Positions 3,654-9,464 of a stretch of 10,138 bases of DNA are shown here, one piece after another; the stretch's first letter is position 1, and each line of letters starts with the position of its first letter. The notes beneath the pieces are model-generated. The model was not told the DNA's origin, ran no database searches, and saw nothing but the letters and a program-made list of their open reading frames with translations. The translations under genes and the position numbers were made by a program. Source of the stretch: Ilumatobacteraceae bacterium (GTDB lineage: Bacteria > Actinomycetota > Acidimicrobiia > Acidimicrobiales > Ilumatobacteraceae); NCBI GenBank assembly GCA_016650435.1, contig JAENVT010000025.1:1-10138 (forward strand), given 5' to 3'.

Positions 3654-4817
3654 TCAGTCGTGCAGGCCTGGAGCGCAAAGACCTTCGAGGTCGCGCACGA
3701 TGATGCGATCGCGGTTCTCGTAGGTGATCTGGTTGTTGGGATCCTTACGAAGGTTGAACGTGCGGAAGCTCATGTCGGTGGTGTCGATCGACAGGATGCG
3801 TCCGATCAGCGGCTCGCCGAGGCCGAGCAACAGCTTGATGACTTCGAGCGCTTGGATCGAGCCGACGATGCCAGGCAGCACGCCGAGCACGCCGGCTTCG
3901 GCGCAACTGGGTGCCAACTCGGCAGGCGGCGGCTCGGGAACCATGTCGCGGTACGTCGGTCCGTCGAGTGGATGAAAGACGCTGACCATGCCTTCGAAGC
4001 GGAAGATCGAGCCATGCACCACCGGTATCCCAAGTTTGACGCTGGCGTCGTTGAGCAAGTAGCGGCTGGGGAAGTTGTCGGCGCCGTCGACGATCACGTC
4101 GTACCCGGCGATGATGTCCATGATGTTGCTGGCGTCGAGTCGCGTGTCGTAGGTGACGACGTCGACATCGGAGTTCAACAGCGTCAGCGTCTTCTTTGCC
4201 GAGTCGACCTTGCGATCGCCGATGCGGTCGAGGTTGTGCAGGATCTGGCGCTGCAGGTTGCTGGCGTCGACCTCGTCCATGTCGACGATGCCGATCGTGC
4301 CGACACCGGCTGCGGCGAGATAGAGCGCTGCAGGTGAGCCGAGGCCGCCGGCGCCGAGCATCAAAACCTTGCTGTCGAGCAGCTTGACCTGACCGGCGAC
4401 ACCGACTTCAGGCAGCAGCAGATGGCGCTGGTACCGATTGCGCTGATCGGCGGTGAGCACGACCGGGGTCTTCCACGGGCGACCTTCGTCCTTCCACTTC
4501 CCGAAGCCTCCGGCAACAGACGAGACGTCGGTGTAGCCGAGCTCCTGCATGGTCTTTGCGGCGAACGCGCTGCGCACGCCACCGGCGCAATACACCACGA
4601 CTTGGGCGTTCTTGTCGAGGAGCCTGCCCTCGACCTGAGCTTCGAGATGACCGCGGGGAATGTGGATCGCGTCGGGCAGGGCGCCCTGGTCGTATTCGTC
4701 TGGTTCGCGCACGTCGAGCACCACCGCGCCGGCTGCGATCTTGTCGGCAGCTCCGGCCGTGTCGACTTCGGTGATCTCCGCTTTTGCGGCGCTGAGCAGA
4801 TCTCGGAAGGTAGCCAT
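3654..4817 (-). CDS. Rhodanese-ThiF fusion: MoeB/MoeZ-type adenylyltransferase-sulfurtransferase
   Basis: Proteins of this kind adenylate the C-terminus of a ubiquitin-like sulfur carrier (MoaD, ThiS, CysO) and pass on sulfur for molybdopterin, thiamine or cysteine synthesis. The 387-residue protein has an N-terminal rhodanese domain (about 20-118) with active-site loop CAGGVRS (Cys77), then an E1-like ThiF domain (about 125-387). The ThiF domain has nucleotide-binding GAGGLGS (155-161), SNLQRQ (186-191), Lys203, DGADNF (244-249) and PSCAEAGVLG with the conserved Cys305. The order is the reverse of MoeZ/Uba4, in which ThiF comes first. Both CxxC zinc pairs of E. coli MoeB are missing: YRD stands at 289-291 where CYRC is expected, and NNQITYE follows RKDP. 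From memory, actinobacterial MoeZ shares this loss. The ATG at 4817 lies 7 nt after a TAGGCT box. The sirtuin ends 33 nt upstream. The carrier partner is not in the window. Confidence 0.9.
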   Translation of the reverse strand: MATFRDLLSAAKAEITEVDTAGAADKIAAGAVVLDVREPDEYDQGALPDAIHIPRGHLEAQVEGRLLDKNAQVVVYCAGGVRSAFAAKTMQELGYTDVSSVAGGFGKWKDEGRPWKTPVVLTADQRNRYQRHLLLPEVGVAGQVKLLDSKVLMLGAGGLGSPAALYLAAAGVGTIGIVDMDEVDASNLQRQILHNLDRIGDRKVDSAKKTLTLLNSDVDVVTYDTRLDASNIMDIIAGYDVIVDGADNFPSRYLLNDASVKLGIPVVHGSIFRFEGMVSVFHPLDGPTYRDMVPEPPPAELAPSCAEAGVLGVLPGIVGSIQALEVIKLLLGLGEPLIGRILSIDTTDMSFRTFNLRKDPNNQITYENRDRIIVRDLEGLCAPGLHD

Positions 4818-8287: not shown

Positions 8288-8560
8288 ATGAACATCATTG
8301 CGTGGATCTTCGTCGGCCTCGTTGCCGGCCTGCTGGCTCGATGGATCGTTCGCGACGACCGCAGCGGTTGCATCTACACGGTCGCCGTCGGGATACTCGG
8401 GGCGCTGATCGGTGGGGCGTTGATGAACGCCGGTGGTCACGATGGCATCGGCGAATTCAGCCTGCGATCGTTGGGTGTCGCCGCGCTCGGAGCGATCTTG
8501 CTGTTGCTGGTTCTGCAGGCGATCAGCGGCGGCCGCCGAGGCATCGGGCGACGCCGCTAG
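8288..8560 (+). CDS. GlsB/YeaQ/YmgE family small membrane protein
   Basis: This is a 90-residue inner-membrane protein of the transglycosylase-associated (PF04226) family. Three hydrophobic segments are visible at about 2-20 (NIIAWIFVGLVAGLLARWIV), 29-49 (a GILGALIGGAL glycine-zipper span) and 60-80, followed by a basic cytosolic tail. The opening pattern of a small helix ending in GLLAR, then a short charged loop and GILGALIGG, is characteristic. Members are often called stress-response proteins, and their molecular role is unknown. The gene ends tail to tail with the ArsC-family gene: the two TAG stops share the bases of one CTAG. Confidence 0.88.
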   Translation: MNIIAWIFVGLVAGLLARWIVRDDRSGCIYTVAVGILGALIGGALMNAGGHDGIGEFSLRSLGVAALGAILLLLVLQAISGGRRGIGRRR

Positions 8561-8913
8561 CGACTCAACAGATCGCGCACACGGTCCTTCGGTCTGCCGA
8601 TGATCGCCTTCTTCTTCGTCACGACGACCGGCCGTTGCATCAGTTGCTTGTGCTTCAGGAGCACGGCAACGACCTGATCCTCGGTTTGCACATCGGCCTC
8701 GGTGAGACCGAGTTTGGTCCACAAGCTGTCGCGGCGGACGAGATCGGTGACCGGGTCTTCGAGCTTGGCGATGATGCCGCGCAATGTGGCCTCGTCTGGA
8801 GGCGTCTTCAGATACAGGACCGTGTCGAAATCGACTCCGAGCTCGTTGGCAATGCTCACGGCATTGCTCGACGAGTTTCAATGAACGTTGTGGTAGATCG
8901 TGACGCCGGCCAT
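8557..8913 (-). CDS. ArsC-family selenoprotein: in-frame TGA (predicted Sec12) at the catalytic cysteine
   Basis: ArsC-family (thioredoxin-fold) proteins reduce arsenate or act in thiol redox chemistry through one active-site Cys. Read from ATG 8913, the frame is open for 118 residues except for TGA at 8880-8878, codon 12. It begins MAGVTIYHNVH-U-NSSSNAV. A gap-free comparison, from memory, with R773 ArsC (MSNITIYHNPAC) puts the TGA on Cys12 and keeps His8, Arg60, Arg94 (QRP) and Arg107 (GRP) at identical numbers. PPDEATLRGIIAKL (38-51) is also typical. It lacks the last ~23 residues of R773 ArsC, as chromosomal relatives may. A SECIS-like hairpin follows the TGA. The intact frame on both sides argues against decay. 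The alternatives are a nonsense mutation, a sequencing error, or translation from GTG 8859, which would lose the active site. Substrate (arsenate or another oxidant) is unknown. It is monocistronic, with a TAGAGT box 5 nt before ATG. Confidence 0.82.
8842..8875 (-). promoter_or_regulatory. Candidate bacterial SECIS element
   Basis: In the mRNA, immediately after UGA-AA, a lower stem CUCGU/ACGAG (5 bp) is followed by a small internal loop (CGA against CA), then a perfect 7-bp upper stem GCAAUGC/GCAUUGC closed by the 5-nt loop CGUGA. The loop begins 17 nt after the UGA and has G as its second base. This satisfies the commonly used bacterial SECIS criteria as I know them: loop 16-37 nt downstream, short loop, and a G in the first two loop positions. 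It lies wholly inside the coding sequence, as bacterial SECIS elements do. Such an element recruits SelB with Sec-tRNA. The E. coli fdhF bulged U is not seen. Confidence 0.75.
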
Positions 8914-8924: not shown

Positions 8925-8954
8925 CTTCGGCGGCACCCTGTGAGACCCCTGTCG

Positions 8955-8960
8955 TATTGT
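8955..8960 (+). promoter_or_regulatory. Possible -10 box (TATTGT) for the RadC/JAB-like gene
   Basis: TATTGT fits TANNNT and would give a leader of roughly 50 nt ending with the strong GGAGG at 9008-9012. No -35 match was found at 16-18 nt upstream. Confidence 0.3.
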
Positions 8961-9007
8961 GATCGTGCGGCTTCCCCCGAGCATCAACGACCCAGTGTCA
9001 CGACGTC

Positions 9008-9012
9008 GGAGG
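9008..9012 (+). promoter_or_regulatory. Ribosome binding site (GGAGG) deciding the start at 9021
   Basis: GGAGG lies 8 nt before ATG 9021. An in-frame GTG at 8940 would add 27 residues with no conserved character and would place this site inside the coding sequence, so 9021 is preferred. Confidence 0.7.
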
Positions 9013-9020
9013 TATATCGC

Positions 9021-9464
9021 ATGCCGCATCCCACCGCCCGTTCCCGCCGGCCTCAGGCCAGCGATCCCATCCGCTCCTCCACCGATGCGATCGCCGTCGT
9101 GTCGATGGTGATTCACCGTCCGCTCGAGGCCGAGACAATCGCGTTCTTCCTCGACGACACCAGCCGCAGCAACACCATCACCGTGGTCAGTGGCACGACC
9201 GACCCCGACTCTGTGCTGTCGGTAGCCGAGTGCATATCGGCGGCGGGCGCCCGGTACCCAGCGTTGTGCGGGGTCGTGCTGGCCACCGTTCGACCTGCGA
9301 CCGCACCAAACCTGCCGGCCACGCTTCCCGGTGACATCGACCGATGGATCGAAGCCAGCCAGATCACCGAATCGAATGGGATCGAGTTGATCGAATGGTT
9401 CATCGTCGGCCCGGCGGGGGTCGACTGCCCCCGCGAACTGCTCGGCGAGCCGGAGCGGTGGTGA
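9021..9464 (+). CDS. RadC/JAB-like domain protein without metalloprotease residues
   Basis: This 147-residue soluble protein begins with a low-complexity basic leader (1-20). The body runs RPLEAETIAFFLDDTSRSN (33-51), ITVVSGTTDPDSVLSVAECI (53-72), GVVLATVRP (84-92), and DIDRWIEASQITESNGIELIEWFIVG (105-130). This succession resembles the RadC/JAB (MPN) fold: the ...FLDD...R strand pair, the LAHNHPSG-like strand replaced by LATVRPAT, and the final helix plus IELIEWFIVG, which parallels the LLDHIIVG end of RadC. The HxHPSGD metal-binding residues are absent, so it cannot be an active JAMM protease. I base this on pattern resemblance only; it could also be an unrelated actinobacterial family. Start chosen by GGAGG. 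It ends 4 nt from the stop of the convergent DUF4031 gene. Confidence 0.6.
   Translation: MPHPTARSRRPQASDPIRSSTDAIAVVSMVIHRPLEAETIAFFLDDTSRSNTITVVSGTTDPDSVLSVAECISAAGARYPALCGVVLATVRPATAPNLPATLPGDIDRWIEASQITESNGIELIEWFIVGPAGVDCPRELLGEPERW

What the first reader, a model, noticed from the sequence alone, without database searches (positions are those of the whole stretch)
8557..8913. ArsC-family gene with in-frame TGA exactly at catalytic Cys12: a probable selenoprotein
Seen: from ATG 8913 the frame is open to TAG 8557 apart from one TGA at codon 12, inside IYHNVH-TGA-NSSSN. Known: R773 ArsC uses His8, Cys12, Arg60, Arg94 and Arg107, and TGA can encode Sec when a SECIS follows. Seen: the four non-Cys residues sit at the same numbers in this protein with no gaps. 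Inference: the UGA encodes Sec, giving a 118-residue seleno-ArsC-like oxidoreductase. Sec would make a far more reactive nucleophile and may mean a substrate other than arsenate. A standard caller would start at GTG 8859 and lose the active site. To my recollection ArsC-like selenoproteins have been proposed from marine metagenome surveys; a cultured actinobacterial example would be notable.
Basis: partly seen in the sequence, partly recalled or inferred. Interest (0 to 1): 0.92.

Follow-up and report, generated by a model that had tools for sequence, protein, structure and literature searches.

The report
Selenocysteine ArsC in Ilumatobacteraceae
A small arsenate-reductase-like gene of an environmental actinobacterium carries a UGA that very probably encodes selenocysteine at the catalytic position, a well-supported new member of a known but biochemically untested selenoprotein family that databases often truncate.

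Summary
In detail: from ATG 8913 the frame is open to TAG 8557 except TGA at codon 12; the ordinary gene call starts at GTG 8859. In 80 relatives from public genomes that column is TGA in 77 and Cys in 3. In the class of Ilumatobacter nonamiensis, 34 of 34 TGA genomes have selA and selB, 31 also tRNA-Sec; 20 of 45 Cys genomes have none of the three. A SECIS-type hairpin with frozen synonymous codons follows the UGA and is found in few Cys homologues. Neighbours use TGA as a stop. The kind is not new: UxxS seleno-arsenate reductases are in print since 2005 (PMC1088965). New, as far as searched, are its actinobacterial home (TGA in 65 of 71 gene-bearing genomes of one family of 221), a named strain carrying it, and its truncation in databases. 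A physiological arsenate role is doubtful: in three single-contig genomes it lies far from acr3, and some acr3 loci carry another reductase type. The window's own genome is not held, so its sel genes were not tested.

The parts
8557..8913 (-). seleno-ArsC gene, 118 codons plus TAG, read through UGA codon 12
8878..8880 (-). in-frame TGA at the catalytic Cys12 position, read as selenocysteine
8849..8867 (-). SECIS-type upper hairpin: GCAATGC / loop CGTGA (8860-8856) / GCATTGC, 7 bp, loop starts at nucleotide 18 after the UGA
8842..8875 (-). extended predicted hairpin including the lower stem, -16.8 kcal/mol for the 48 nt from the UGA
8557..8859 (-). 100-residue ORF from GTG (8859, inside the SECIS loop), the start an ordinary gene caller picks
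   Evidence: 57 of the 120 best database hits start after residue 12 in the same way
8890..8892 (-). codon for active-site His8
8734..8736 (-). codon for Arg60
8632..8634 (-). codon for Arg94
8593..8595 (-). codon for Arg107
8288..8560 (+). convergent neighbour, Transgly_assoc family protein, overlapping the ArsC stop by 4 bases

Best explanation
It is a selenoprotein gene of the ArsC (PF03960) family with a UxxS motif, in an Ilumatobacteraceae-like actinobacterium. The UGA at codon 12 is decoded as selenocysteine by tRNA-Sec(UCA) delivered by SelB, which recognises the hairpin at nucleotides 11 to 29 after the UGA (inferred from the sequence and from relatives). The product folds like glutaredoxin-type arsenate reductase (predicted), and Sec12 should act as the nucleophile that attacks an oxyanion or oxidised substrate held by Arg60, Arg94 and Arg107, then be released by an outside thiol or redoxin because the UxxS motif has no resolving Cys (inferred). 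Arsenate reduction is possible, but the gene's place outside the acr3 loci makes a more general thiol-redox role at least as likely. The confidence below is for Sec at residue 12 in an ArsC-type redox protein, not for the substrate.
For: (1) Column 12 is TGA in 77 and TGC in 3 of 80 loci from the genome scan. (2) In a draw of 296 genomes from the class of I. nonamiensis (G009) 84 had a hit at E <= 1e-20; for 80 of these 84 the sel genes were searched. TGA genomes: 34, of which 34 have selA, 34 selB, 31 tRNA-Sec, all over cut-off. Cys genomes: 45, of which 24 have selA, 22 selB, 23 tRNA-Sec and 20 have none; 1 genome undetermined. Fisher p = 7.6e-7 for at least two of three genes, not corrected for kinship. 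(3) In the family draw of 221 genomes 71 had the gene at E <= 1e-25, 65 with TGA and 6 without; a selA match in 57 of the 65 TGA genomes, 56 over cut-off, and tRNA-Sec in 7 of the 8 TGA genomes without selA. (4) ARAGORN reads tRNA-SeC with anticodon TCA at all 48 RF01852 sites given to it that were over the cut-off: 8 and 40, including all 31 class-level TGA genomes (29, G005 and G009) and those 7 family genomes. (5) A hairpin of 5 bp or more with G in the first two loop positions in 90 of 95 distinct TGA sequences against 13 of 50 Cys sequences; the window meets the published bSECIS limits (legend in PMC13188914 read). (6) Codons 17-21 are nearly frozen at synonymous sites in 62 distinct TGA genes (AAT 53/53, GCC 60/62, GTG 61/62, CGC 40/40, ATT 62/62); entropy ratio 0.31 for codons 16-23 against 0.87 for codons after 30, p = 0.002, while Ile is ATC in 47 of 62 at codon 6 and 33 of 34 at codon 35. 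(7) In a second clade the 7-bp stem pairs in 25 of 25 sequences, with two pairs changed on both sides. (8) Protein 5' of the UGA is conserved: Ile6, His8 and Asn9 in 62 of 62, with variable codons at Ile6. (9) The locus in L028/G007, in the same gene order, has TGC, and that genome has no selA, selB, selD or tRNA-Sec over cut-off. (10) Model pLDDT 90.2; best PDB matches are ArsC structures at TM about 0.8.
Against: The window's own genome is not held, so its sel genes are untested. One TGA genome (G393, 1.3 Mb) has neither selA nor tRNA-Sec, 8 of 65 family TGA genomes have no selA match, and 3 of 34 class-level TGA genomes have no tRNA-Sec hit (under stricter filters); completeness is not given. 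The association is one-sided: about half of the Cys genomes at class level also have the machinery, and 5 of the 6 non-TGA genomes of the family draw have selA. RF01852 alone is not specific: it is over its cut-off in 5 of 14 control genomes where selA is found in 1 of 14. In the window's clade (63 sequences) the stem shows no double change, only G-U type variation, the outermost pair forms in 25 of 63, and shuffles pair as well (2000 of 2000), so there is no covariation support there. The window's fold has z of only -2.26, 5 of 200 shuffles folding as well. No 75Se, mass spectrometry or activity data. TIGR00014 score 93.3 is under its cut-off of 106.05.
Confidence: 0.95

Rival explanations
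1. Sequencing or assembly error, or a decaying pseudogene: the TGA is a broken Cys codon.
For: A single base separates TGA from TGC/TGT, and the window is one contig of unknown source.
Against: The same TGA at the same column in 77 of 80 loci with an otherwise open aligned frame; nearly frozen synonymous sites after the UGA and conserved protein before it.
Confidence: 0.01
2. The gene really starts at GTG 8859 and makes a 100-residue protein without the active site; the upstream part is not translated.
For: 57 of the 120 best database hits start after residue 12, 53 of them with exactly 100 residues, so public gene calls favour this start.
Against: Residues upstream of the UGA are conserved as protein (Ile6, His8, Asn9 in 62 of 62); that GTG sits in the hairpin loop, where the SECIS explains it; the short form would lack strand 4-8 and the catalytic loop of the fold.
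Confidence: 0.02
3. The organism uses a genetic code in which TGA is not a stop (for example TGA = Trp).
For: Would open the frame.
Against: Four neighbours end in TGA (class II aldolase, MoeB, ORF 6064, PepA), PepA 8 residues after the end of a domain match that reaches profile position 310 of 310; the exchange partner is Cys in 3 of 3, never Trp; Sec machinery is common in the relatives.
Confidence: 0.01
4. It is a selenoprotein whose physiological job is arsenate detoxification feeding Acr3.
For: All R773-type active-site residues are in place; fold matches rank ArsC above Spx; acr3 found in 10 of 12 genomes tested, 9 over cut-off.
Against: In the three single-contig genomes (G035, G011, G164) it lies more than 1 Mb from acr3; beside acr3 an LMWPc-fold protein lies in 2 of 5 loci inspected and an ArsR-type regulator in 2 of 5; no window neighbour with a Pfam match is an arsenic gene; G004 has the TGA gene and no acr3 hit.
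Confidence: 0.35

Closest known systems
Arsenate reductase selenoprotein family (UxxS; 'ArsC 1' of the GOS survey; passages of PMC1088965, PMC2398784, PMC9312934, PMC13188914)
   Same: Pfam ArsC domain, Sec in place of the catalytic Cys, UxxS motif (U12-N-S-S15), downstream hairpin, Cys homologues.
   Different: Those reports are from marine shotgun data or are table entries; the passages read name no Acidimicrobiia source. Here the host lineage, the sel genes of relatives and the distribution are shown.
Glutaredoxin-coupled arsenate reductase of E. coli/R773 (PDB 1jzw, 1i9d)
   Same: His8, residue 12, Arg60, Arg94, Arg107 at the same numbers; TM 0.81-0.83, 35-36% identity.
   Different: Sec instead of Cys; Asn13-Ser14-Ser15-Ser16 instead of Gly-Thr-Ser-Arg; not beside acr3 in the genomes looked at.
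Spx/MgsR regulators and YffB
   Same: Same superfamily fold, TM 0.73-0.81 to the query length.
   Different: Lower sequence scores (TIGR01617 45 bits against TIGR00014 93 bits); the window motif is UxxS, whereas Spx has CxxC (recalled).
Arsenate reductase-like selenoprotein NF041106 (UxxC, 'ArsC 2')
   Same: Related family with Sec at the active site (table of PMC13188914).
   Different: UxxC motif rather than UxxS; NF041106 was not among the NCBIfam matches of the window protein.

Membership tests
Bacterial selenoprotein gene | In-frame UGA at a column that is Cys in homologues | tested here: met
   TGA 77, Cys 3 of 80 loci; 63 of 63 full-length proteins among the 120 best database hits have Cys
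Bacterial selenoprotein gene | bSECIS: 3-9 nt apical loop, 4-16 bp upper stem, G in first two loop positions, 16-37 nt from UGA, MFE <= -7.5 kcal/mol (legend in PMC13188914) | tested here: met
   window: 5-nt loop CGUGA, 7 bp, 17 nt between UGA and loop, -16.8 kcal/mol for 48 nt
Bacterial selenoprotein gene | selA, selB, selC, selD in the same genome | tested here: inconclusive
   present in most TGA-bearing relatives; the window's own genome is not held
Bacterial selenoprotein gene | Sec in the purified protein | not testable with these tools
   needs 75Se labelling or mass spectrometry
ArsC family PF03960 | Pfam gathering score | tested here: met
   53 bits against cut-off 24, with C at residue 12
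Arsenate reductase (glutaredoxin) equivalog TIGR00014 | curated cut-off 106.05 bits | tested here: not met
   93.3 bits with C at residue 12
Arsenate reductase (glutaredoxin) equivalog TIGR00014 | arsenate reductase activity | not testable with these tools
   no experiment
Arsenate reductase selenoprotein family, UxxS | ArsC domain with UxxS | tested here: met
   U12 N13 S14 S15 in a PF03960 match

The most novel reading that the evidence does not exclude
The seleno-ArsC is a long-kept housekeeping selenoenzyme of Ilumatobacteraceae and related Acidimicrobiia that is not an arsenate detoxification enzyme: it sits in a partly conserved non-arsenic gene neighbourhood, coexists in at least some genomes with a separate acr3 locus carrying an LMW-phosphatase-type reductase, and would use Sec with an outside thiol (perhaps mycothiol) on another oxidised substrate, with repeated Sec/Cys exchange, in at least one case together with loss of Sec decoding.
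Probability: 0.4. Interest if true: 0.6.

Novelty: new member of a known kind. Interest (0 to 1): 0.42.

Why it matters
A selenoprotein that is common in one family of environmental actinobacteria appears in databases without its active site: 57 of the 120 best hits start after residue 12 (that these are TGA genes is inferred, since their DNA was not seen). A named strain record, Ilumatobacter nonamiensis YM16-303 (L047, genome G009), carries the TGA form and selA, selB, selD and tRNA-Sec, so Sec insertion and the enzyme's substrate, open since the family was proposed in 2005, could be tested directly. Sec and Cys versions in the same gene order also give a natural test of what Sec contributes.

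Tried and rejected
Error or pseudogene, internal GTG start, and a reassigned TGA code were considered and rejected (see rivals). The Rfam search of the window gave only two weak miRNA matches far under the gathering score, and ARAGORN found no tRNA in it. Covariation was sought in the window's own clade and not found, because the stem hardly varies. A mycothiol link was tested with MshC TIGR03447: 12 of 12 genomes match, best at 408-423 bits, none over the cut-off of 485.1, and 13 of 14 control genomes also match at that E-value with 1 over the cut-off, so it stays suggestive. Literature searches that led nowhere: selenocysteine with Ilumatobacter (one paper, by title and abstract start a soil metaproteomics study, not read), selenoprotein with Acidimicrobi- (two papers, title and abstract start only), selenocysteine with Acidimicrobiia (one paper, title and abstract start only), four-term searches (no paper), exact phrases for an ArsC selenoprotein (no paper), arsenate reductase with selenocysteine and mycothiol (10 of 60 listed, none read). 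deep-Sep paper PMC12013277: a term search of its main text found no ArsC, arsenate reductase or Actinomycetota mention. Statistics on loci are not corrected for kinship.

Full report
Observation. The minus-strand frame from ATG 8913 to TAG 8557 is open except for TGA at 8880-8878, codon 12. An in-frame TGA at 8919-8917 leaves ATG 8913 as the only start before it. The ordinary ORF begins at GTG 8859, 100 residues. With C written for residue 12 the protein matches Pfam ArsC at 4.5e-14, TIGR00014 at 93.3 bits (cut-off 106.05) and, weaker, the Spx families. Against E. coli ArsC 1jzw the residues His8, 12, Arg60, Arg94 and Arg107 share numbers, with two cancelling one-residue gaps between 60 and 94 (counted by eye).

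Relatives. A search of 5.8 billion proteins gave 3534 homologues, the best 120 listed. Of these 120, 63 reach across residue 12 and all 63 have Cys there; 57 start after it, 53 of them exactly 100 residues long. This is what TGA-bearing genes look like after ordinary gene calling, though the DNA behind these 57 was not seen. A scan of the genome collection found 174 stretches encoding relatives and kept the best 80. At the column of residue 12 these 80 carry TGA in 77 and TGC in 3, and no other in-frame stop occurs inside the aligned part (a first pass by motif placed 76 of 80, 74 TGA and 2 TGC). By my reading of the titles, 73 of 80 are actinobacterial, many Ilumatobacteraceae or other Acidimicrobiia; seven are labelled Verrucomicrobiota (4), Acidobacteriota-type (2) or Myxococcales (1). 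L047 is Ilumatobacter nonamiensis YM16-303, a record without the MAG label, so probably an isolate.

Sec machinery. No genome is held for the window. In nine relatives' genomes SelB and tRNA-Sec are over cut-off in eight; the ninth, G007, carries the Cys version. SelD is found in 10 of 12 genomes, not in G006 and G007, both with the Cys version; G006 does have selA, selB and tRNA-Sec. In a draw of 296 genomes from the class of G009 (I. nonamiensis), 84 had a hit at E <= 1e-20. For 80 of the 84 (the four weakest dropped because of a cap, one of them with TGA) I searched tRNA-Sec, selB and selA. By codon: 34 TGA, 45 Cys, 1 undetermined. TGA genomes: selA 34, selB 34, tRNA-Sec 31 of 34. Cys genomes: selA 24, selB 22, tRNA-Sec 23 of 45, and 20 with none. 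Fisher p is 7.6e-7 for two or more genes, without correction for kinship. So a TGA genome has the machinery, while a Cys genome may or may not. In the draw from the family of G001 (the Ilumatobacteraceae-labelled closest relative; the family also holds G009) 71 of 221 genomes have the gene at E <= 1e-25, 65 with TGA and 6 without; 150 have no hit. A selA match is found in 57 of the 65 TGA genomes (56 over cut-off) and in 5 of the 6 others, and tRNA-Sec in 7 of the 8 TGA genomes without selA and in 4 of 4 further Cys genomes. The exception, G393, is 1.3 Mb and may be partial. RF01852 passes its cut-off in 5 of 14 control genomes while selA is found in 1 of 14, so I checked anticodons: ARAGORN reads tRNA-SeC, TCA, at 8 of 8 sites over the cut-off and at 40 of 40, which cover all 31 class-level TGA genomes with a hit and the 7 family ones. 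The best site of G007 is tRNA-Gly.

SECIS. In the window GCAATGC, loop CGTGA, GCATTGC begins 10 nucleotides after the UGA. The 48 nucleotides fold at -16.8 kcal/mol, z -2.26, 5 of 200 shuffles as good. This meets the limits in a figure legend of a 2026 review (PMC13188914, passages read): loop 3-9 nt, stem 4-16 bp, G in the first two loop positions, spacing 16-37 nt, energy at most -7.5. In 95 distinct TGA sequences 90 have as their best hairpin one of 5 bp or more with G at loop position 1 or 2; in 50 Cys sequences 13 do. In 62 distinct genes of the window's clade, codons 17-21 hardly vary at synonymous sites: AAT 53/53, GCC 60/62, GTG 61/62, CGC 40/40, ATT 62/62, whereas Ile is ATC in 47 of 62 at codon 6 and 33 of 34 at codon 35; the entropy ratio is 0.31 for codons 16-23 and 0.87 for codons after 30. 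In that clade (63 sequences) no pair changes on both sides and the outermost pair forms in only 25, so covariation gives no support there; in a second clade a 7-bp stem with loop GGUC pairs in 25 of 25 sequences, with two pairs changed on both sides. GGUC is, from memory, also the loop of the E. coli fdhF SECIS.

Evolution. A 98-row protein tree needs seven Sec/Cys changes, five forced by well-supported branches; the window pairs with L001 at 99/90. Few columns are available, so many forks are open. The gene order around the gene (ORF 9774, ORF 8940-9464, ArsC, Transgly_assoc, PepA, ORF 6064, Sir2, MoeB) is kept in whole or part in many of the loci, and L028, with TGC, has all of these in the same order. 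That genome lacks selA, selB, selD and tRNA-Sec over cut-off: Cys at the corresponding site in a genome without Sec decoding.

Mechanism. The AlphaFold model (45-sequence alignment, C at 12) has mean pLDDT 90.2, and the best PDB matches are ArsC structures from Yersinia, E. coli and Vibrio, TM about 0.8, with Spx close behind. Shown: fold type by prediction, conserved active-site residues, UxxS motif. Inferred: Sec12 attacks the substrate held by the three arginines and is regenerated by an outside thiol or redoxin, since the motif has no resolving Cys. Whether arsenate is the natural substrate is open. Acr3 is found in 10 of 12 genomes, 9 over cut-off, but in the three single-contig genomes it is more than 1 Mb away from the gene. 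Beside acr3 lies an LMWPc-family protein in 2 of 5 loci inspected (G001 and G009) and an ArsR-type regulator in 2 of 5 (G035 and G164); in the fifth, G011, I scanned two flanking proteins and saw neither (20 of the 46 predicted ORFs were scanned). So another arsenate reductase type may serve arsenic in at least some of these bacteria. Mycothiol as partner is suggestive only: MshC-like genes in 12 of 12 genomes, all under the cut-off.

Known or new. The Sargasso Sea paper (PMC1088965, passages) reports 14 arsenate reductase selenoproteins with UXXS and a predicted SECIS; the GOS paper (PMC2398784, passages) lists 77 as ArsC 1; two reviews list the family (PMC9312934 and PMC13188914, passages), and the latter says that the functions of this group remain largely uncharacterised. 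In the passages of PMC1794560 that I read, ArsC-like selenoproteins are listed for two Deltaproteobacteria and not for the actinobacteria named. I found no paper on this selenoprotein in Acidimicrobiia in searches, which cover open-licence PMC papers only. Verdict: real, well supported, a new member of a known selenoprotein family, with an actinobacterial distribution not seen in what I read and an untested function.

Noticed in passing
L179, L180, L181 (selD of G035, G009, G164): SelD itself carries one in-frame TGA in these three genomes, so SelD is probably a selenoprotein there, while the seven other genomes with SelD have none.
   Followed up: no
G044, G188, G032, G249, G052, G142, G259 (L130, L151, L164, L165, L175, L176, L178): A more distant, mostly Cys ArsC group has seven members with TGA at the same column, with other motifs such as HNPG-U-GKS and other downstream hairpins.
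   Followed up: partly
L035, L045, L052, L073, L074, L075, L076: TGA-type ArsC loci on contigs labelled Vicinamibacterales, Myxococcales, Acidobacteria and Verrucomicrobiota groups: lateral transfer or mis-binned contigs.
   Followed up: no
L023: Record titled Bifidobacterium breve MAG carries a gene nearly the same as those of actinobacterial MAGs L015 and L016; the label looks wrong.
   Followed up: no
window 8881-8892: Codons just before the UGA are also nearly frozen in the clade: His8 CAC 62 of 62 and His11 CAT 36 of 36, perhaps a decoding-context effect.
   Followed up: no
window 3654-4817: MoeB-rhodanese fusion; MoeB is a listed selenoprotein family elsewhere, but this copy has no in-frame TGA and ends in TGA.
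   Followed up: partly
window 8557-8560: The ArsC stop and the stop of the convergent Transgly_assoc gene overlap by four bases.
   Followed up: no
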